NCBI RefSeq assembly: GCF_001592945.1
Contig: NZ_LRPB01000012.1
Location: 1 to 64,000, forward strand
Length of the DNA stretch: 64,000 nt
DNA from: Roseivirga seohaensis
Lineage (GTDB): Bacteria; Bacteroidota; Bacteroidia; Cytophagales; Cyclobacteriaceae
Direction: 5' to 3'
Shown here: positions 54,648-62,150 of the stretch, in pieces
Layout of the letters: every line of letters begins with the position of its first letter
How positions within the stretch are numbered: position 1 is the first letter of the stretch
Made by a program: the position numbers and the translations under genes
The notes under the pieces: model-generated
What the model was told of the DNA's origin: nothing
Database searches by the model: none
The model's input: the letters and a program-made list of their open reading frames with translations, nothing else

Positions 54648-55040
54648 TCAGTTTAATTTATAAAGTTAAGCCCGTTGGTCAAAATAGAATTAGTATGACC
54701 TAGGTACTTGATGTTTACATTAAAGTACTGATAGTCATTGTTTTAATAGTGGTGAAGACAAGTCAGTATCTATATCAAATATAGTTAAGAATTACCAGAA
54801 GATACTGTATGCGTTGAAACCTCTTTATTAAAGGATCGAACAACTCTCCAAATAATGAAGGAATCCAAAGCTGTTTTTAATAGAAACATCAACAACCGTA
54901 AAGTTCAAATTATTTAGTTTCCCAAACGGGTTTACTTAATTAGTTATTGTATATTTAATGGTTGAAAGTATGGCTGAAGGTTGTTATATACTCCATTATT
55001 TATTATTATTGTTTAGGGTAAAAAAGTAAATTTTTTTCAG
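54648..55040. other. AT-rich intergenic region before the lasso precursor
   Basis: 393 bases without a credible gene. It contains the left copy of a degenerate direct repeat (54879-54914, see the repeat entry) and, nearer the precursor, a very AT-rich stretch with candidate promoter elements but no exact TAnnTTTG box. Read on the minus strand, the repeat region is open and could be a fragment of an old gene. Confidence 0.6.
54879..54914 (+). repeat. Left copy of degenerate 36-bp direct repeat
   Basis: Begins AATAGAAACATCAACAACC and ends TTCAAATTATT. It matches 30 of 36 bases of the copy at 61878-61913, in the same orientation, and all six differences are transitions. The two copies bracket the lasso cluster. 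Read on the minus strand both encode a similar peptide (NNLNFTVVDVSI here), with two of the four codon changes synonymous, so both may derive from one coding sequence. Confidence 0.6.
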
Positions 55041-55181
55041 ATGAAGGAAAAATGCAAATTAAATTCACAAAAGATAAGAGGCCAGTGGAAAAAGCCTTCA
55101 ATTAAAAAAACAGTTAGGATTTCATCCATTACGAAAGGGACATTTGGCCCTTCAGTATTTGATGGTAGTTTTACGTCTTGA
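55041..55181 (+). CDS. Lasso peptide precursor (A peptide)
   Basis: 46 residues. Leader residues 1-32 (MKEKCKLNSQKIRGQW, then KKPSIKKTVRISSITK) and core 33-46 GTFGPSVFDGSFTS. Seen: Thr31 at -2, the residue lasso proteases need; Gly33 as core residue 1; Asp41 as core residue 9, able to close a nine-residue Gly1-Asp9 macrolactam ring; a five-residue tail GSFTS; and a C-terminal Ser. The leader has Trp16-x2-Pro19-x-Ile21 at -17, -14 and -12, the spacing of the YxxPxL leader motif bound by PqqD-like B1 proteins, with Trp for Tyr. The gene ends 32 bases before the cyclase gene on the same strand. The peptide is predicted, not known; Phe12 could be the steric lock. A 14-residue product would be at the short end for lasso peptides. 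Confidence 0.85.
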   Translation: MKEKCKLNSQKIRGQWKKPSIKKTVRISSITKGTFGPSVFDGSFTS

Positions 55182-55213
55182 TGACAATTTAGTATTCAGA
55201 TGAGTTTTTTTAA

Positions 55214-57094
55214 ATGAGTTTATTTTTTGGTTTGTTTGATTTGGAAAATGAAATAGTTCCAGATCAAGTTTATCAGAGTTTTTGTAAAACTCAAATTGAT
55301 ATTGAAAGTGAGTTCCATTCTTTGAGTGGGACTCACTTTTTTTTGGGGAGAAATGGCAAGCAGAAGGATAGTGGCCTCTTTGCGAGCGAAGATGGAAGAT
55401 ACTACGCTGTGATCGATGCGCGCCTAGATGGGGTAGGTAAACTTGTATCCGAATTGAAAAGTAGCTATCCAGAAGTAAGTCAGGATACTTGTCATAATTT
55501 ACTGGTTTTTAAAGCTTATTTGGTATGGGGAGAAGAGTGTACTTCGCATTTACAGGGTGATTTTGCAATAATGGTTTATGATAGTGAGCTTAATTCAGTT
55601 TGGGGTTCTCGAGACCACTTAGGCATAATGCCATTCTTTTATTGTATTAGAAGTTCTACAATGGTTTTTGCGCAATTGCCGTCTATAGTAGCTTCCGTAG
55701 TTAATAGCTCGATTAACTTTAATTATATAGCAAATTACTTGGCCTTTATGCCAACAGATGGAGAGTATACCTTTTTTGAAGATATCCATACTCTTAAGGC
55801 AGGTCAAAATATAAGGTTTCAAACCTCAGGTTTTAGTGTTTCAACATATTATACACTAGGGGCCACATTGGATAGGAGCTTAAAGCCTGATGAGACCGCT
55901 AGCAAATTGCTGGAATTGATGAGTCTTGCAGTGAAAGATCGCTTGGGAAATGCTCAGATACCGTCAAGTATGCTTAGTGGAGGTTTAGATTCTTCAACTG
56001 TTAGTTGCCTTGTTGCTCGTGAAATATCAAAGGAAGACAAAAAACTGCATGCTTATACCTATGTACCAATGGAAGGTGTCAAATATCCGAATCTTCCAGG
56101 ACTATTTGTAAATGAGGGACCATTTGCAAAAAAGGTTAAAGAGGCTTATACAAATATTGATCTCTCTTTAATTGATTTGAAAGGTGTGAGTATATTTACT
56201 CATTTGGAGAGATACCTAAAACTCTGCGGTGCGCTGGAGGTTCATAATTTTTATAATTGGCTATGGACGCAAGAATTTCTAATACGATGTAAAGATAAAG
56301 GAAGCACTGTATTATTCTCTGGCCAAATGGGAAATCTAAGTATTTCTTATAATGGTAGACTTTATGGTCTAGAGTTGGCAAAGAAAGGTAAATGGAAAGA
56401 ATTTGTTAACTATGAACTTAAAACAAAAAAACTAAAGGGCAGAAAAGTTATTACTCATTTGGCATACCAAATGTTTTGTGCTTTTGCTCCTTCTAAACTA
56501 AGGGTGTTTGTAGATACCTATATAAGCCAACTGGGGTCTCATAGTTACAATTGGATGGTCAAAGATTCTTTTTTGAAAAAAAATAATTTAGGGAAAAGGT
56601 CTTTTCTCAAAGCTAATAATACCTTTAAGAATGATAGAGCACTACGTGTCCAAATGGCATCTTATATCCAGAAGTTAGCAGTTAATAGTAAAACCTATGA
56701 GCAAATCTATGGAGTAAGAGAACTCGACCCAACTGCGGATAAGCGTTTACTTGAATTTTCTTTGTCAATACCATCTGAGTACTGGTCGTTACATGGTGAA
56801 AACAGATATATGGCAAGAGAAATGAGCAAGGGCTTGTTGCCAGATGAAATACGGCTAAACAAAAAAAAGGGTAGGCAGTTGATCGATAGTAATCTATTGA
56901 TATTGCAAGATCTAGATGAAATAAAAAGAAGGATTAGTGGCTGGAAAAACATGAAAGAGTTAAGTGATATTTTTGAATTTGATAAGGTGCTTAAACACTT
57001 GGATTCATATGACTTTAACAGCTATGACCCCGATTTTAGTACGTTTTTAAGTAGGCTGATTGCAGTATGTTTATTAGTTGAAATGAATAGTTGA
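55214..57094 (+). CDS. Lasso cyclase (C protein, asparagine-synthetase homologue)
   Basis: 626 residues. The N-terminal glutaminase-like domain (MSLFFGLFDLENE, then LQGDFAIMVYDSELNSVWGS, RDHLG) lacks the catalytic Cys2, as lasso cyclases do. The synthetase domain has the ATP pyrophosphatase loop LSGGLDSSTVS (Ser255-Ser261) and the C-terminal DPTADKRLLEFSLSIPSEYW and RYMAREMSKGLLPDEIR segments of the family. It should adenylate Asp41 of the precursor and form the amide with Gly33. It is directly downstream of the precursor gene, and its end lies 2 bases from the convergent HTTM gene stop. Confidence 0.9.
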   Translation: MSLFFGLFDLENEIVPDQVYQSFCKTQIDIESEFHSLSGTHFFLGRNGKQKDSGLFASEDGRYYAVIDARLDGVGKLVSELKSSYPEVSQDTCHNLLVFKAYLVWGEECTSHLQGDFAIMVYDSELNSVWGSRDHLGIMPFFYCIRSSTMVFAQLPSIVASVVNSSINFNYIANYLAFMPTDGEYTFFEDIHTLKAGQNIRFQTSGFSVSTYYTLGATLDRSLKPDETASKLLELMSLAVKDRLGNAQIPSSMLSGGLDSSTVSCLVAREISKEDKKLHAYTYVPMEGVKYPNLPGLFVNEGPFAKKVKEAYTNIDLSLIDLKGVSIFTHLERYLKLCGALEVHNFYNWLWTQEFLIRCKDKGSTVLFSGQMGNLSISYNGRLYGLELAKKGKWKEFVNYELKTKKLKGRKVITHLAYQMFCAFAPSKLRVFVDTYISQLGSHSYNWMVKDSFLKKNNLGKRSFLKANNTFKNDRALRVQMASYIQKLAVNSKTYEQIYGVRELDPTADKRLLEFSLSIPSEYWSLHGENRYMAREMSKGLLPDEIRLNKKKGRQLIDSNLLILQDLDEIKRRISGWKNMKELSDIFEFDKVLKHLDSYDFNSYDPDFSTFLSRLIAVCLLVEMNS

Positions 57095-57096
57095 TT

Positions 57097-57921
57097 TTAT
57101 AAATATTCAACCAACCACCTATTACAATAGATAATAGCGGGGTATGCGGCAATAAATACCCAGAAAAATGTGCCCAAACCAAGGGCCCAGCTATTTATTA
57201 AATGGAATGTAAATCCTAGGCTCAATAAAACTATCAAGCCAATATTGCCACCAAATAAAGCCAAGGGAAAGGTGAGTTCGAACATAATTACTGACCAAGA
57301 AAGTAATCTGTTGAATTTATGGTTTTTAAATACCGACCAATTTGATATTGAGGATATATAAATGGGATTGTTGAGAACACGTAAAATTGCTTTGCCATTT
57401 CTCCATTCGACTTCTTTAAGTTTTGTAATTCCATTTTCAAAATAAACAAGACAGCATTGTATGGCAATAGCCCATATGCAAAAAAGCTCGGTAAGTTCAC
57501 TATTTGGTACTAACCTTTGTAAACTAAGTGTTACAAAAATGGCCTGTAGGAAAACGGAATATCCAGTTCGTATAATTACTCTAATATTAAACAATAGTAA
57601 ACCCGATATATAAATCCACCAAATTGCCATACTGCTCAGCCAGTAGTTGTTGCTGAAGCAAAACAAAACAATGGCAGCTAGAATTCTAGCTATAATTAAC
57701 CATAGTACATTGGGGTAGTCAAGTAACTTGCTTAATAATGGAAAGATGAACTTTGCATGAGCTAAAGAAGAACGAAACCGACTTATGGTTGACCAAGAAA
57801 AAAGGTGGTTGCTCTGAAAGAATCTTCTTCTAGATAATTGTTCAATTGAATTTATAATTATACCAATTGAAGCAATTTTTGCAATGGCTAATAAAGTACT
57901 GTTTAGATCACTAAATAACAT
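57097..57921 (-). CDS. HTTM-domain membrane protein (SdpB-like)
   Basis: 274 residues, about seven membrane helices. Motifs of the HTTM family (vitamin-K-carboxylase-related, including SdpB): YFENGITKLKEVEWRNGKAI, RVLNNPIY, and the late HLINSWALGLGTFFWVFIAA followed by YPAIIYC. In Bacillus the SdpB/SdpA pair is needed to mature the SDP toxin. Its partner here (57911-58417) overlaps by 11 bases. In a lasso cluster without an ABC exporter it could process, export or protect against the peptide (inference). A carboxylase-like reaction cannot be claimed. Confidence 0.72.
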   Translation of the reverse strand: MLFSDLNSTLLAIAKIASIGIIINSIEQLSRRRFFQSNHLFSWSTISRFRSSLAHAKFIFPLLSKLLDYPNVLWLIIARILAAIVLFCFSNNYWLSSMAIWWIYISGLLLFNIRVIIRTGYSVFLQAIFVTLSLQRLVPNSELTELFCIWAIAIQCCLVYFENGITKLKEVEWRNGKAILRVLNNPIYISSISNWSVFKNHKFNRLLSWSVIMFELTFPLALFGGNIGLIVLLSLGFTFHLINSWALGLGTFFWVFIAAYPAIIYCNRWLVEYL

Positions 57922-58417
57922 TGCCTTTTAAAATTGATGATTTGAACAAAAAGTCAGTAGTTGTAGCCTGTTCATCAATTGTTATTGAAAGCTCAAAAGT
58001 TTCTTCATGAATAACTTTCTCTTGAATTAAATAATTCGCAATAAGTCTAGAAGTCAATTCCGACTTTCTTTTAATCTTCTCATCATTGGTGTCGTTTATC
58101 GAAGCCAGAATAATTTGCCAAAGCCCATTTGACTCATGGAATTTAGGGGTCCATAATGGTCCAAAGAAAGATATATGTGGACGTATGTCAAACTTTTTCC
58201 ATTCTAACCATGTCCCGTCCTGAGTTTTCTCTCTAATGAAGAGTTCTAAGCTTGGTAAGGGCTTAGAAAAAAGAGCCCATTGATTAATCGGGAATAGATA
58301 AGAAAAAATATTGAAGAACTTCGCCAAATCCCCATAATGGGCATTCGGAAATAGAATTCTTACTAAACTAAATGTAATCCAGAAAACCAGTATTGATAAA
58401 ATAAAGGTTTCAATCAT
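57911..58417 (-). CDS. Membrane-anchored partner of the HTTM protein (SdpA-like)
   Basis: 168 residues. One N-terminal membrane helix (about 3-24, FILSILVFWITFSLVRILF), then an extracytoplasmic beta-rich domain: FPINQWALFSKPLPSLELFI, then REKTQDGTWLEWKKFDI. The W-x-x-F-S-x-x-P and DG-W pattern resembles SdpA and the C-terminal domain of lipase-maturation-factor-type HTTM partners. The start overlaps nothing upstream; the end overlaps the SdpB-like gene by 11 bases, so the two are translationally coupled. Homology to SdpA is my reading of motif and context, not proved. Confidence 0.6.
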   Translation of the reverse strand: MIETFILSILVFWITFSLVRILFPNAHYGDLAKFFNIFSYLFPINQWALFSKPLPSLELFIREKTQDGTWLEWKKFDIRPHISFFGPLWTPKFHESNGLWQIILASINDTNDEKIKRKSELTSRLIANYLIQEKVIHEETFELSITIDEQATTTDFLFKSSILKGNVI

Positions 58418-58771
58418 AGTTGCTTAGGTCATTTAATGTTGTTGAAACTTAAAATTAACTTATTAGGCTTATTTTTAACTATTCCTTTTATCTGTTTTTT
58501 TTAATTTAAGGGTATTTGAATTTTAGTAGAAGTTAGCTGACATCCATTCTTAAGAATTGCCCGAGCTCTTTCTCTTATGCTACCAATGAGAACATCAAAC
58601 TAATATGCACTTTGGTCGTTCTCAACCTATTTTACGTGTTTGCATAGTCTCCGCTCATGTAGCCTGTGTTGCTTCATAATTTCTTGACACTTCTGTCTTA
58701 CTTGATTCCATACATAATAGTAATAGACACTGTCTATTATAAAATGGCATAGCTCATTTTGACGAAAGTGG
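58418..58771. other. Intergenic region inside the lasso cluster, possible decayed sequence
   Basis: 354 bases between the B2 protease stop and the SdpA-like start, all on the minus strand. No ORF above 35 codons fits. The minus strand has several short open stretches in different frames (for example LIGSIRERARAILKNGC at about 58600-58546), with a base composition more balanced than its surroundings, which suggests the remains of a gene or mobile element. A perfect palindrome lies at 58721-58739. I found no second lasso precursor here. Confidence 0.5.
58721..58739. promoter_or_regulatory. 19-bp palindrome after the B2 gene
   Basis: TAATAGACA (58721-58729), C, TGTCTATTA (58731-58739), perfect 9-bp arms with a single central base. 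It lies 33 bases past the B2 stop on the minus strand. It may be an operator, a weak terminator, or an end of a decayed mobile element. Confidence 0.45.
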
Positions 58772-59233
58772 CTAGTGTATGGCTTGTTTAAAATAGCCAA
58801 GTTTTCCTACTACGGAATACTCTTGGTGGTCTATTTCACCAGTAACAATTGTGTTTCCTGTTCTGACCCATGCGTGAGACTCTAGCAAATTCATTTTATT
58901 TAGTCTAACACCAATATAGGTTGTGTGTGCTATAGATTTTAATCGTAATAACCAATGTGCACAAAGTGCTTGGATTAGGCAACTACTTTCCCAAGGTGTA
59001 TTGTTGCTAACCCTAATTATTATTGTCTTTAGTCGGTTCACAAAGTTTATTTGATTACTTGATGAATCCAAAGGTGTTTCTTTATCAACTTGTCCAATCC
59101 AAGTAATGATTATTCGGAAAGGTATTATTAAAATACAAAGCCTACTAAAACCTAAGGTAATAAGAACAACTGCGTACAGTAATATGTCCTTTTTCCTTAT
59201 GGAAATAAGTTTATGAAGTGAGATGGGTATCAA
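58772..59233 (-). CDS. Lasso peptide biosynthesis B2 protease
   Basis: 153 residues with a TTG start (no ATG before the conserved domain; a TAG lies in frame 9 codons upstream). An N-terminal hydrophobic region (about 18-50) leads to the transglutaminase-like core: NTPWESSCLIQALCAHWLLR with catalytic Cys, then TTYIGVRLN and LESHAWVRTGNTIVTGE with catalytic His. It should cut the precursor after Lys32. Typical lasso systems split this function into B1 (leader binding) and B2; B1 here is the PqqD-like protein at 61487. It runs divergently from the nucleotidyltransferase gene. Confidence 0.88.
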   Translation of the reverse strand: MIPISLHKLISIRKKDILLYAVVLITLGFSRLCILIIPFRIIITWIGQVDKETPLDSSSNQINFVNRLKTIIIRVSNNTPWESSCLIQALCAHWLLRLKSIAHTTYIGVRLNKMNLLESHAWVRTGNTIVTGEIDHQEYSVVGKLGYFKQAIH

Positions 59234-59392
59234 GTATTTAAAATTTGTGTTATTTATCTAGGTGTCTACTTTGTTTTAAGATTTATCCTTTTCATGGAAG
59301 TAAGGAAAATCTCTTCGGTTTATTGATTTTTGAAGAACCTTTTAAAGACTATCAAAAGTAGTCAAATCTAAATTTTTACCTTATTATTATTT

Positions 59393-60502
59393 ATGAAGAA
59401 AACGGGTTTGTTTGCAGAATGTAGTTCTGAGTTGAAATTTTTTATCAGTTTGATAGAGCAACAAGAAAAAAAAAATACTGATGCAAAAATGGAAGGTATC
59501 AACTGTGATGACTTTATTAGCTTTTTATCTCGTCATCAGGTTATTAATTATATGTCGATCCTAATGCCAGTATTTAGGCCTAATATATCTGAGGCTGATT
59601 ATAACAAAGTTTCAAGGTTAGTAGAGGGAGAAGTATTTAGGCAACTTGAGCTAACACACACTCTGGTTAATATAGTCAAATTAATATATAAAAGTCAGAT
59701 AAACGTACTTTCTTTTAAAGGGCCTGTGCTATCATATGAACTATATGAATCCTATGGGTTAAAGTCATCTATTGACCTTGATTTATTAGTAAAGAAGGAG
59801 GATGTGGTAGCGGTTGAGGAATTACTTTTGAGTAGAGGTTATATGCCCGAGAAGCTGAGGCTTGGGAAGATGCCTCGGTTAGTTTGGAGACTTTTTAGGA
59901 TCTTCAACTACCATGGAGGATATATTAATCTCAAAAAACGGCAAAAGATCGAGTTACATTGGAAATTTTTTGCGTCAGAAAGGGCTTTTCCAAAGAGTAC
60001 TGAAGAGCAGTTTGAAACGCTAAAGCCTTGTGTGATTGCAGGGGAAACGATTTTTACTTTACCTAAAGAAGATCTTTTTATTTATTTGGCTATACATGGT
60101 TCGATACATCTTTGGGTAAGACTTAAGTGGCTACTGGATATAAGAGGGTTGCTTAATAAATATGGAAATGATATGGATTGGAAGTATGTTTTGAGAGAAA
60201 GCGACAGGGTAGATATGAGAAGAGCTATACTCCTTGCGGTCTATTTAAGCAATGTTTTTTTTGATACTATAATTCCTGTAGAGATGAAAGGGCAAAGCAA
60301 TGATAAGAATTTGGAAAAACTAGTAAAGAGGTCTGTTCGGAATATTACAGGAGATTTTAGCCCAGGGAGTAGACTAAAGTATACCCAAGTGATTATGCTT
60401 GTTAAGGGCAGACCATTGGAAAACTTAAAAGGGTATACCACACTGTTTTTTTACTATTTTACTAGACCTTTAGTTCTCGGCTACAAGAAGGTTTTTAATT
60501 AA
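59393..60502 (+). CDS. Lasso-cluster nucleotidyltransferase family protein
   Basis: 369 residues of the uncharacterised nucleotidyltransferase group (PF14907 type). The NT fold lies at about 95-150: VLSFKGPVLSYELYESYG and SIDLDLLVKKEDV, where GPxxS and DxD (Asp-x-Asp) are the metal/nucleotide site. The rest is helical (LHWKFFASERAFP, EDLFIYLAIHGSIHLWVRLK, WLLDIRGLL). In lasso clusters such enzymes occur with an HPr-kinase-like gene and are thought to add or modify nucleotide/phosphate groups. A -7-like TAAATTTT (7 of 8) is at 59369-59376. Confidence 0.82.
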   Translation: MKKTGLFAECSSELKFFISLIEQQEKKNTDAKMEGINCDDFISFLSRHQVINYMSILMPVFRPNISEADYNKVSRLVEGEVFRQLELTHTLVNIVKLIYKSQINVLSFKGPVLSYELYESYGLKSSIDLDLLVKKEDVVAVEELLLSRGYMPEKLRLGKMPRLVWRLFRIFNYHGGYINLKKRQKIELHWKFFASERAFPKSTEEQFETLKPCVIAGETIFTLPKEDLFIYLAIHGSIHLWVRLKWLLDIRGLLNKYGNDMDWKYVLRESDRVDMRRAILLAVYLSNVFFDTIIPVEMKGQSNDKNLEKLVKRSVRNITGDFSPGSRLKYTQVIMLVKGRPLENLKGYTTLFFYYFTRPLVLGYKKVFN

Positions 60503-60529
60503 TAACTCTTAAACTCTATCAAGGGGCGG

Positions 60530-61456
60530 TTAAACATTGAGAGTTTGTTCTATTATTTGTTTATAAAATAAGCCTTCGGTAGGGCGAGTGATAGAATTAA
60601 TGCTTGTGGACGAAGCTAACTTTGTGCAGAAATTGAAATGCTCCTTTTGAAGGTCTATAACATCAATCATGAAATGGCGATAAGTATTATTGAGTAGAGC
60701 GATAACTTTGTCTACCCCTGTCAAAGACTCTATTTTCAGTTTATGAATCCGCGAGTCGACTGATAGGCAGTAGATTGCTTTTAATGCGGTTTTCTCTGAA
60801 CAAAATTGATCACCAAGTTGAGCTTCAAATTTATTAACTATTGGTATATGGTTTAGTTTTGATTGATTCTTGTTTCCCACTATTCTTAATGTTTCAGGTG
60901 TTATTTTTATAATAGGAAATGATGGGACGACAAGAGGAGGCTGACTTGTTGATAATTCAATTAGAGATACATCATCGGATAAAATTGAATACCCTAAATC
61001 GTAACAAGCTGTCGCTATGGTAGACTTTCCAACTCCAGACACTCCAGCAAATATAATTGCTTCTTTGTCTTTTCTTATGGCACAACCATGAATAGCAAAC
61101 TTGCCTCTCATCAATAGCCAAAGCCCCAATACTCCTTGTAGTAAAATTTGTTTAGTTACTTTGAGATTTAAATCATTTCTAGTTTCAATAAGAATTTGAT
61201 TGTCCTGCTTAATCCATGCTTTAAGACCCACAGAATAATCCATTAATATGTTAGCTCTATTGCTCCATACCTTCAGTGTTTCATCGTGGTAAGAAAAGTA
61301 GCGGGTATTGTTGCCAAGCGAATCGGGTACTGAAAGGGTGTTAATTTCCACTTGTACATCTACTCTTTCTTTACATTGAGAGAGGTCAGGGATCGAAGGG
61401 AGTGCTTGGTTGGATTGTACTATGAACCCGTAAATTCTATAATGAAACTTGGTCAT
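60530..61456 (-). CDS. HPr-kinase-like lasso tailoring kinase
   Basis: 308 residues. P-loop at about 145-155: IFAGVSGVGKSTIATACYDL, then SILSDDVSLIEL with the Asp pair of HprK-type kinases, and VPSFPIIKITPETL. The N-terminal third (about 1-120) is an unrelated beta-rich domain that precedes the kinase in lasso-associated members. Related enzymes phosphorylate the C-terminal Ser of the paeninodin precursor; the precursor here also ends in Ser. It is downstream of the PqqD-like gene (30-base gap) and converges on the nucleotidyltransferase gene. Confidence 0.85.
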   Translation of the reverse strand: MTKFHYRIYGFIVQSNQALPSIPDLSQCKERVDVQVEINTLSVPDSLGNNTRYFSYHDETLKVWSNRANILMDYSVGLKAWIKQDNQILIETRNDLNLKVTKQILLQGVLGLWLLMRGKFAIHGCAIRKDKEAIIFAGVSGVGKSTIATACYDLGYSILSDDVSLIELSTSQPPLVVPSFPIIKITPETLRIVGNKNQSKLNHIPIVNKFEAQLGDQFCSEKTALKAIYCLSVDSRIHKLKIESLTGVDKVIALLNNTYRHFMIDVIDLQKEHFNFCTKLASSTSINSITRPTEGLFYKQIIEQTLNV

Positions 61457-61486
61457 TTTGATAAAAAAATCCCTCGAAGTGAGAGC

Positions 61487-61774
61487 CTAATTAATTTTTA
61501 TAAAGTTGTTTTCCCACATTTCAATTAAAAAGGAATTGACATGCTCAAAACACTCTTCCTCGCTGACATCATACTTAGCTTGTAATATTTTACATAAGTT
61601 TTCAATGCTGAGCTCTTCAGATAAAATATTCCAAATGTCACTAGCTATAGTGTCTAACTGAATATATCGATCAGTTTTTATGTCCATTATAATCACTTCA
61701 TTGTCTATTATACTAAAAATAATCTCTGGATTTCTAGAGACAAGTTCTGTTTTGCTAATATGGATGCGTTGCAT
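61487..61774 (-). CDS. PqqD-like lasso B1 leader-binding protein (RRE)
   Basis: 95 residues, the PqqD winged-helix RRE fold: VSRNPEIIFSIIDNEVIIMD, IKTDRYIQLDTIASDIWNIL, SEELSIENLCKILQAKYDVS and EEECFEHVNSFLIEMWENN. In lasso systems this domain binds the YxxP leader motif and presents it to B2. It is first of a minus-strand pair with the kinase; a -7 box lies 29 bases before its ATG. Confidence 0.92.
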   Translation of the reverse strand: MQRIHISKTELVSRNPEIIFSIIDNEVIIMDIKTDRYIQLDTIASDIWNILSEELSIENLCKILQAKYDVSEEECFEHVNSFLIEMWENNFIKIN

Positions 61775-61802
61775 TTTTTTAGACGTTTAGTAAGGTGATT
61801 CT

Positions 61803-61810
61803 CAAAAATA
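61803..61810 (-). promoter_or_regulatory. -7 box (TATTTTTG on minus) of the B1-kinase operon
   Basis: An exact TAnnTTTG on the minus strand, 29 bases upstream of the B1 ATG at 61774. It is the only exact box I see for the lasso genes. Confidence 0.6.
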
Positions 61811-61877
61811 TGTAATGCAACTTTAAAGTTTGTTTTAATTCGGATAATGTTTGTTGATGTATTCTACGATTGTCTTC

Positions 61878-61913
61878 AATAGAAACACTAACAACCACAA
61901 AATTCAGATTATT
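61878..61913 (+). repeat. Right copy of degenerate 36-bp direct repeat
   Basis: Begins AATAGAAACACTAACAACC and ends TTCAGATTATT; 30 of 36 bases match the copy at 54879-54914, same orientation, differences all transitions. The pair encloses about 7 kb holding all the lasso genes. Confidence 0.6.
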
Positions 61914-62150
61914 CGGTAAAGTTAAGTAAAATTAGATGTTCACTAAAGTGCTTTTTATTTGAACTGGTTGCTATATGTAAGAAATTACTTAAAAATTGAG
62001 GCTTTGAATGAGGGTTTTCTTGAGTTTAAGTAATTCGGTACGGAATGCTTTTAAAGAACTTTATTGGGTATTTTTAAAGTGGCTTATAGCTGCTGAAAGA
62101 AACAAGGTAAATTAAACCAATTCATTATCAATCGCGTTGTCAAGGCATTC

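What the first reader, a model, noticed from the sequence alone, without database searches (positions are those of the whole stretch)
55041..61774. Complete lasso-peptide gene cluster with an overlooked 46-residue precursor
A short gene directly before a lasso cyclase encodes a leader with W-x2-P-x-I and a core GTFGPSVFDGSFTS. Thr at -2, Gly1, Asp9 and a short tail fit lasso chemistry. PqqD-like B1, Cys/His B2 protease, kinase and nucleotidyltransferase are all within 7 kb. The gene is far below normal gene-calling length, so it may be missed in annotations. A 14-residue Gly1-Asp9 lasso peptide from a Cytophagales-type genome appears new to me.
Basis: partly seen in the sequence, partly recalled or inferred. 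Interest (0 to 1): 0.93.

Follow-up and report, generated by a model that had tools for sequence, protein, structure and literature searches.

The report
Lasso-peptide cluster with SdpAB-like membrane pair
A Roseivirga-like bacterium carries what looks like a complete set of genes to make a small knotted peptide of 14 residues, and the set includes two extra membrane genes, resembling ones used by other secreted peptides, that may help to finish or release it.

Summary
The finding is real. Window 55041-55181 encodes a 46-aa lasso precursor (W-x2-P-x-I leader, Thr at -2, core GTFGPSVFDGSFTS) beside cyclase, B1, B2, HprK-like kinase and PF14907 nucleotidyltransferase. The one orthologous cluster found, in Roseivirga pacifica, keeps 14 of 14 core residues but 21 of 32 leader residues. 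The cluster is an insert of about 7.26 kb, missing at that place in sister genome G132. Its enzymes match the phosphorylated/hexosylated lasso type (PMC9266682, passages).

R. pacifica keeps both in a permuted gene order. Divergent pairs sit in two more lasso cluster types: G256/G391 (same genus) and G593 (another family). Most SdpB-like genes and most lasso loci sampled lack this pairing. Searches for SdpB or HTTM with 'lasso peptide' found no paper. The pair's role, finishing or releasing the peptide at the membrane, is inferred, not shown.

Verdict: a new lasso peptide of a known kind with a probably undescribed accessory module.

The parts
54671..61926 (.). Inserted unit of about 7.26 kb holding the cluster; G+C 33.9% against 36.4-41.6% in 94 equal-sized segments to its left
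   Evidence: Left and right flanks are contiguous in G132 (about 10 bases between) and G241 (none between). Right edge uncertain by about 15 bases (about 61911-61928). TAAAGTTAAG stands at both edges (54661, 61917), but the right copy also aligns partly to native sequence, so a target-site duplication is not shown.
54872..54914 (+). Left copy of a 43-base direct repeat (81% identical, spacing 6999), upstream of the precursor gene; meaning unknown
55041..55181 (+). Lasso precursor A, 46 aa; leader 55041-55136, core 55137-55178 GTFGPSVFDGSFTS
   Evidence: identical core in L032 9823-9960
55214..57094 (+). C, Asn-synthetase-like lasso cyclase, SGGLDSS motif, no Cys after Met1
   Evidence: PF00733/PF13537, NF033535 195 bits below its cut-off 525, 64% identity to L032, motif
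57097..57921 (-). SdpB-like/HTTM membrane protein, 274 aa
   Evidence: TIGR04033 E 8.8e-10, 38.7 bits, cut-off 178; no Pfam hit of its own; its homologue in L066 hits PF05090 HTTM, E 8.1e-6, 26.0 bits, cut-off 27.7; 55% identical in R. pacifica
57911..58417 (-). SdpA-like partner, 168 aa, one N-terminal hydrophobic helix, W-x2-F-x2-P motif; gene overlaps the SdpB-like gene
   Evidence: No Pfam/NCBIfam hit, no PF17418 hit; 46% identical in R. pacifica; aligns with small partners of other SdpB-like genes
58656..58726 (-). Remnant of a TetR gene that is intact next to the SdpA-like gene in R. pacifica
   Evidence: 83% over 71 bases to L032 13352-13419, E 5.8e-14; protein score 72, reached by 0 of 300 shuffles and 0 of 300 other window segments; L032 gene is TetR_C_37/TetR_N
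58772..59233 (-). B2 leader peptidase (Cys85, His in ESHAW; no clear third acid residue seen)
   Evidence: NF033537 69.7 bits, cut-off 33; PF13471 65.3 bits, cut-off 26
59393..60502 (+). PF14907 nucleotidyltransferase (possible PsmN-type hexose transfer)
   Evidence: 150 bits; 54% identical in L032
60530..61456 (-). HprK-like kinase with His123, P-loop Lys144, Asp161-Asp162
   Evidence: TIGR04352 E 4.7e-10, 39 bits, cut-off 200; motif; 53% identical in L032
61487..61774 (-). B1, PqqD-like leader-binding protein
   Evidence: PF05402 52.2 bits over cut-off; NF033536 64 bits, cut-off 80
61871..61913 (+). Right copy of the 43-base direct repeat, upstream of B1

Best explanation
This is a complete-looking, probably horizontally acquired lasso-peptide cluster of the kinase plus nucleotidyltransferase kind. 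Proposed order of events: B1 binds the W-x2-P-x-I leader; the kinase phosphorylates the C-terminal Ser14 of the precursor; the nucleotidyltransferase may add hexose to that phosphate; B2 cuts after T-K; the cyclase joins the Gly1 amine to the Asp9 side chain around the tail GSFTS. Predicted lasso mass 1386.609 Da; with one phosphate 1466.576; with phosphate and one hexose 1628.628. The SdpB-like/HTTM membrane protein and its SdpA-like partner act at the inner membrane on the finished or nearly finished peptide, helping to finish or release it, as SdpA and SdpB are needed for the SDP toxin (recalled) and as HTTM proteins are assumed to take part in linaridin maturation (PMC9927463, passage). 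Shown here: gene content, core conservation in one relative, insertion as one unit, recurrent co-location of SdpA/SdpB-like pairs with lasso genes. Inferred from known relatives: phosphorylation, hexosylation, cleavage, ring. Inferred with much less support: any action of the pair on the lasso peptide.
For: Family hits for C, B1, B2, kinase and nucleotidyltransferase. Core 14 of 14 and leader 21 of 32 residues kept in R. pacifica. All eight genes kept in R. pacifica in a permuted order; precursor 76% identical, the other seven proteins 46-64%. Flanks contiguous in two sister genomes, so the insert holds these eight genes, a TetR remnant and no other gene that I recognised. SdpA/SdpB-like pair among lasso genes in three cluster types (lasso cyclase as best NCBIfam model in G256, G391 and G593). 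C-terminal Ser in most candidate precursors of kinase-bearing lasso loci (by-eye count, see full report). Known chemistry for kinase and nucleotidyltransferase: PMC9266682 (passages). HTTM in linaridin clusters: PMC9927463 (passage).
Against: The cyclase, the kinase and the SdpB-like protein score well below the cut-offs of their best NCBIfam models. The SdpA-like protein has no direct family hit, and PF17418 found nothing in G000, G390, G256 or G366. The pairs of G256 and G593 have no NCBIfam hit either; they rest on profiles made here and on one HTTM match just below cut-off. Only one orthologous cluster is known. Most SdpB-like genes are not near lasso genes and most lasso loci lack the pair: 2 of 390 genomes in the order sample show both within 10 kb, though 61 have B2 and 27 an SdpB-like gene. 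The lasso locus of G396, same genus, shows no SdpB hit in the 19 kb held. Candidate precursors in three kinase-bearing loci (L070, L075, L077) do not end in Ser. A 9-residue ring with a 5-residue tail is a very short lasso. The TetR remnant and the permuted order leave open that the unit is decaying. Nothing was measured.
Confidence: 0.8

Rival explanations
1. The lasso cluster is as described, but the SdpA/SdpB-like pair is a passenger: the left-over of a separate SDP-like peptide system, or an immunity or general membrane function, with no action on the lasso peptide.
For: Related pairs occur without lasso genes in the stretches held: G366, G191, G623, G529, G716, G952 (two pairs) and, weaker, G925. 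In G191 and G623 a small gene (124 and 102 aa), in G366 a gene of 288 aa, stands upstream on the same strand, a possible peptide precursor. In the window the pair is antiparallel to A and C.
Against: The insert holds only cluster genes as far as recognised. The pair survives in R. pacifica through a permutation. It recurs in two other lasso cluster types, one in another family. No SdpC-like precursor was seen by eye among the ORFs of the insert.
Confidence: 0.4
2. The product is a branched cyclic (unthreaded) peptide, because five residues after a nine-residue ring are too few to hold a thread.
For: Ring of 9 and tail of 5 by the Gly1-Asp9 reading of the core.
Against: All lasso enzymes are present. 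Phe12 could act as plug, and a C-terminal phosphate or hexose-phosphate could bulk up the end (inference). Another locus of the order has a 14-residue candidate core with a 6-residue tail (L078).
Confidence: 0.15
3. The cluster is silent or decaying after horizontal transfer: the permutation broke regulation (TetR remnant, split of the divergent B1/A promoter region).
For: TetR remnant; permuted order against R. pacifica; low G+C insert.
Against: All eight reading frames are intact; the core is kept against silent change.
Confidence: 0.2

Closest known systems
Pseudomycoidin (psm) and paeninodin lasso clusters (kinase, with or without nucleotidyltransferase)
   Same: Cyclase, leader-processing proteins, HprK-like kinase with His-Lys-Asp-Asp residues, nucleotidyltransferase (psm), precursor ending in Ser (PMC9266682, passages seen)
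   Different: Roseivirga-like host, 14-residue core, genes on both strands, no ABC transporter found by a motif scan of the window, and the SdpA/SdpB-like pair. That PsmN belongs to PF14907 was not tested.
SdpABC / YitPOM peptide toxin systems of Bacillus subtilis
   Same: Small SdpA-type protein next to an SdpB-type membrane protein in a peptide cluster (PMC6818787, passages)
   Different: No SdpC-like precursor seen; SdpA-like protein not matched by PF17418; SdpB-like protein far below the TIGR04033 cut-off; on the other side of a supported branch (98/96) from SdpB genes beside PF17418-type SdpA (root only at the midpoint)
Linaridin clusters with an HTTM protein (crdG)
   Same: HTTM protein in a RiPP cluster, assumed to take part in maturation, mechanism unclear (PMC9927463, passage)
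   Different: Other precursor and core enzymes
Other lasso loci of the same order (for example G050, G223, G245)
   Same: C, B1, B2, kinase and in several the nucleotidyltransferase; leader W-x2-P in several candidate precursors
   Different: No SdpB-like hit at E<0.01; an ABC transporter motif in 3 of 8 (L075-L082)

Membership tests
Lasso peptide cluster | Precursor with leader motif, Thr at -2, core with Gly1 and acid at 7-9 | tested here: met
   W16-x2-P19-x-I21, Thr31, Gly33, Asp41, kept in R. pacifica. The defining motif itself is recalled.
Lasso peptide cluster | PqqD-like B1 | tested here: met
   PF05402 over cut-off; NF033536 64.1 bits, cut-off 80
Lasso peptide cluster | B2 transglutaminase-like peptidase | tested here: met
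   NF033537 69.7 bits, cut-off 33; Cys and His present, third acid not evident
Lasso peptide cluster | Asn-synthetase-like cyclase | tested here: inconclusive
   Best NCBIfam model is the lasso cyclase NF033535, E 2.3e-57, but 195 bits against a cut-off of 525; PF00733 over cut-off; SGGLDSS present
Lasso peptide cluster | Threaded isopeptide product | not testable with these tools
   needs MS and NMR
Phosphorylated lasso peptides (paeninodin/pseudomycoidin type) | HprK-like kinase with His-Lys-Asp-Asp residues, precursor ending in Ser | tested here: met
   His123, Lys144, Asp161, Asp162; Ser46 last residue; kinase family scores weak (39 bits, cut-off 200); motif from PMC9266682
Phosphorylated lasso peptides (paeninodin/pseudomycoidin type) | Phosphate or hexose-phosphate on the C-terminal Ser | not testable with these tools
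   needs MS
SdpABC toxin system | SdpB (TIGR04033) over cut-off | tested here: not met
   38.7 of 178.4 bits
SdpABC toxin system | SdpA (PF17418) | tested here: not met
   no match in G000 at E<=1; the same search is over cut-off in 13 of 29 genomes
SdpABC toxin system | Secreted SdpC-like precursor with hydrophobic C-terminal domain | tested here: inconclusive
   none seen in the ORF list of the insert, by eye only; no SdpC model was searched

The most novel reading that the evidence does not exclude
SdpA/SdpB-like (HTTM) pairs are a portable membrane module that finishes or releases peptide natural products across Bacteroidota, and one branch of it has been taken up by lasso clusters at least once, possibly twice, where it modifies or releases the threaded peptide: a lasso-peptide step not described so far.
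Probability: 0.35. Interest if true: 0.75.

Novelty: new variant of a known kind. Interest (0 to 1): 0.52.

Why it matters
The lasso peptide itself adds a short core kept unchanged between two species. The larger point is the pair of extra genes. SdpA and SdpB are needed to make the SDP toxin (recalled), and HTTM proteins are assumed to act in linaridin maturation with unclear mechanism (PMC9927463, passage), so what such proteins do is open. A lasso peptide is small, stable and easy to follow by mass spectrometry, so a lasso cluster that depends on such a pair would make their reaction directly testable. A related, larger cluster (two sulfotransferases, three oxygenase-type genes and a below-cut-off glycosyltransferase match beside G256's lasso genes) suggests heavily decorated lasso peptides.

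Tried and rejected
Chance ORF: rejected by the conserved core in R. pacifica. SdpA/SdpB-like pair in place of an ABC exporter: not supported. A motif scan found ABC transporters in 3 of 8 lasso loci without the pair (L075, L076, L077 of L075-L082; L082 is only 4.1 kb) and none in L070 or in the clusters with the pair, so lack of an ABC gene does not follow the pair; the scan also wrongly flagged the R. pacifica kinase and may miss some. The 43-base flanking repeat as a genome-wide mobile element: no other copy reported at E<=0.01 in 19 genus genomes (even the window's right copy was not reported, so weak copies would be missed), and not seen in the R. pacifica B1-A gap. Target-site duplication: ambiguous. 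Structure models: SdpB-like mean pLDDT 44, SdpA-like 58.5, two sequences each, too poor for fold search, so none was run. Solved structures by profile of 10 SdpB-like sequences: 0 hits at E<=10, so a link to vitamin K-dependent carboxylase structures was not shown. PHROGs: one weak hit of unknown function for the SdpA-like protein (E 0.19), nothing for the SdpB-like one. One origin against two for the lasso-linked pairs: not resolved, since the fork joining the two lasso branches with the five non-lasso rows is open. Paper searches that gave little.
Full report
Observation. The 46-codon ORF at 55041-55181(+) is present as described, 32 bases before a 626-aa cyclase. Its leader has W16-K-K-P19-S-I21, Thr31 at -2 and Lys32 at -1; the core Gly33-Ser46 is GTFGPSVFDGSFTS with Asp at core position 9. 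The neighbouring enzymes are confirmed by family models: B2 by NF033537 (69.7 bits, cut-off 33) and PF13471; B1 by PF05402; the nucleotidyltransferase by PF14907 (150 bits); the cyclase by PF00733 and PF13537, and by NF033535 as best NCBIfam model, though at 195 bits against a cut-off of 525; the kinase only weakly by HprK-related models (39 bits, cut-off 200). The kinase has His123, P-loop Lys144 and Asp161-Asp162, like the His-Lys-Asp-Asp motif described for lasso kinases (PMC9266682, passages).

Conservation. A scan of one genome for each of 84,980 species with the cyclase returned one relative, Roseivirga pacifica (L032; the method finds close relatives only and may leave out records very near the window's genome). 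There the precursor keeps 14 of 14 core residues with 5 silent codon changes and no amino-acid change; the leader keeps 21 of 32, of which 16 of 18 in its second part. In the genus 4 of 19 genomes have a cyclase match at E<=1e-30: G000, G390, G391 and G396. G256, with a match at 1.5e-21, is a fifth with lasso genes around it. The other 14 were not examined further for lasso genes beyond these searches.

57097-57921(-) encodes a 274-aa membrane protein that matches TIGR04033 (SdpB family) over residues 150-260, E 8.8e-10, but at 38.7 bits against a cut-off of 178. Its homologue in G256 matches PF05090 (HTTM) at 26.0 bits, just under the 27.7 cut-off. 57911-58417(-) overlaps it and encodes a 168-aa protein with one N-terminal hydrophobic helix and no Pfam or NCBIfam hit. 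I call it SdpA-like for three reasons: it stands directly before and overlaps the SdpB-like gene; it carries W-x2-F-x2-P and aligns with the small partners of other SdpB-like genes; and in 13 of 29 genomes with an SdpB-like gene PF17418 (SdpA) scores over its cut-off, in each of the 13 on the same contig and within about 1 kb of the SdpB match (coordinates). PF17418 does not match the window protein, so this is resemblance of arrangement and motif, not membership.

The pair belongs to the cluster. First, the unit is an insert. The sequence left of about 54671 and right of about 61927 is contiguous in G132 (about 10 bases between) and G241 (none between), while the window has about 7.26 kb there holding A, C, the pair, B2, nucleotidyltransferase, kinase, B1, a TetR remnant and no other gene that I recognised. 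Its G+C is 33.9%, outside the 36.4-41.6% range of 94 equal segments to its left. Second, R. pacifica has all eight genes in another order: B2, NT, K, B1, A, C, SdpB-like, SdpA-like, then an intact TetR gene. In the window the order is A, C, SdpB-like, SdpA-like, a TetR remnant (58656-58726, 83% over 71 bases, E 5.8e-14; protein score 72 against a maximum of 52 in 300 shuffles and 50 in 300 other window segments), then B2, NT, K, B1. The block was permuted, yet the pair stayed. Third, SdpA/SdpB-like pairs sit among other lasso genes: G256 (L066) and G391 (L069, the SdpB-like gene cut by the contig end) in the same genus, and G593 (L155) in another family of the class. The cyclases there have NF033535 as best NCBIfam model, at 268.5, 260.8 and 475.6 bits, each under the 525 cut-off. 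The pairs of G256 and G593 have no NCBIfam hit and rest on profiles made here; G593's was found at E 9.7e-34 with a six-row profile that already held the G256 and G391 rows. G593's B2 lies about 33 kb away beside a second set of lasso genes.

How unusual is this? In the order sample, B2 is in 61 of 390 genomes and an SdpB-like gene in 27 of 390 (at most 6 candidates scored per genome, so some may be missed). Both lie within 10 kb in 2 (G000 and G256) and far apart or on other contigs in 3 (G029, G216, G367), read from the coordinates. In the class sample 37 of 345 have an SdpB-like gene at E<=1e-8; of 36 genomes then tested for B2 (34 of those 37, plus G191 and G366), one had it, G593. In the phylum sample 5 of 335 match a 10-row profile at E<=1e-15. 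Leaving out the query genome, the three SdpB searches gave nine genomes with a close homologue (E<=1e-15: G256, G191, G366, G593, G623, G529, G716, G952, G925), of which two are among lasso genes. With about one genome in six having a B2 gene and some 20 kb of 4 Mb counting as near, chance would give about 0.001 per genome (my rough estimate). G390 and G391 came in through the cyclase and are not counted there. Against this, G396's lasso locus shows no SdpB hit in 19 kb, and most homologues are not lasso-linked.

Tree. On 19 SdpB-like proteins, 6 rows beside PF17418-type SdpA and 3 rows beside a third partner type lie apart from the ten rows of the window's kind (98/96). Among the ten, window and R. 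pacifica form one branch (100/99), G593, G256 and G391 another (100/99), and five non-lasso rows a third (86/92); the fork joining them is open. The root is only the midpoint and the program warns of long branches among the other nine rows. So uptake by lasso clusters happened once or twice; this is not resolved.

Mechanism. Kinase plus nucleotidyltransferase plus C-terminal Ser predicts phosphorylation of Ser14 and possibly hexose on that phosphate, as for paeninodin and pseudomycoidin (PMC9266682, passages; that PsmN is a PF14907 protein is not tested). Of 12 candidate precursors that I picked by eye in kinase-bearing lasso loci, 9 end in Ser (window, L032, L066, L069, L078, L079, L080, L082, L155) and 3 do not (L070 Thr, L075 Ala, L077 Asn); none was picked in L076 or L081. 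For the pair I rely on analogy. YitM, paralogue of SdpC, is suggested to be processed in a way that depends on YitP and YitO, the SdpA and SdpB paralogues (PMC6818787, passages), and an HTTM protein is assumed to act in linaridin maturation, mechanism unclear (PMC9927463, passage). Three non-lasso pairs (G623, G529, G716) are followed by a DCC-type thiol-disulfide gene (PF04134 shown for G623; the other two by eye). The residues invariant across ten SdpB-like proteins are Tyr160, Lys167, Trp173, Gly176 and His240, candidates for mutation.

Literature. Searches of the held open-access library for 'SdpB' with 'lasso peptide' and for 'HTTM' with 'lasso peptide' returned no paper. 'Lasso peptide' with 'Roseivirga' returned one listing with the lasso term once, not opened. 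'Lasso peptide', 'Bacteroidetes' and 'RODEO' returned 12 papers, 11 listed; one was opened, where the term stands only in references and glossary. Two subscription papers looked up, among them a large lasso genome-mining study, are not held. So 'not described' holds only for these searches.

Verdict. An ordinary lasso cluster in its core enzymes, a new short core, and an accessory SdpA/SdpB-like membrane pair that recurs among lasso genes and was not found described there.

Noticed in passing
L066 1-18100 (G256) and L069 1-13500 (G391): A second, larger lasso cluster type in the same genus: cyclase, B1, kinase, SdpA/SdpB-like pair, B2 (seen in L066 only), and in L066 two sulfotransferases (PF00685), Asp/Asn hydroxylase-like (PF05118), PhyH, JmjC_2 and a below-cut-off glycosyltransferase match; candidate cores VPGVSVNDGGNPFTDYNS and VPGVSVNDGGDPFSDYNS with an unusual Val1.
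   Followed up: partly
L164 8489-12984 (G952): Two SdpA/SdpB-like pairs in tandem beside a 412-aa protein (no Pfam hit) whose start looks, by eye, like a leader with a double glycine; may be another peptide system using the module.
   Followed up: partly
L154 7993-10144 (G623), L156 and L157: SdpA/SdpB-like pairs followed by a DCC-type thiol-disulfide gene (family hit for L154 only); in L154 preceded by a 102-aa small protein, a possible peptide precursor.
   Followed up: partly
L048, L052, L053, L054, L057, L064: A third type of HTTM-linked partner, open frames of 225-279 aa with a W-x-L-F-A-P-N-P motif, beside SdpB-like genes and without a PF17418 match there; possibly related to DUF5819 (name by resemblance; only a weak DUF5819 match, E 0.048, for another partner in L068).
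   Followed up: partly
window about 61996-62108; L116 4569-9865; L119 4379-9569: Between the VWA and lipocalin-like genes, G241 and R. pacifica carry an operon of a sigma-factor-like, a TonB-like, a large secreted and an OmpA-like gene (named by eye); the window and G132 lack it, so this site is variable in the genus.
   Followed up: partly
window 54872-54914 and 61871-61913: A 43-base direct repeat upstream of both A and B1, whose genes are divergent neighbours in R. pacifica; could be a split and duplicated control region. Not explained.
   Followed up: partly
L078 8513-8644 (G223): Another 14-residue candidate lasso core, GPRAGSSDSNMMSS (Gly1, Asp8), near cyclase, B1, B2, kinase and nucleotidyltransferase.
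   Followed up: no
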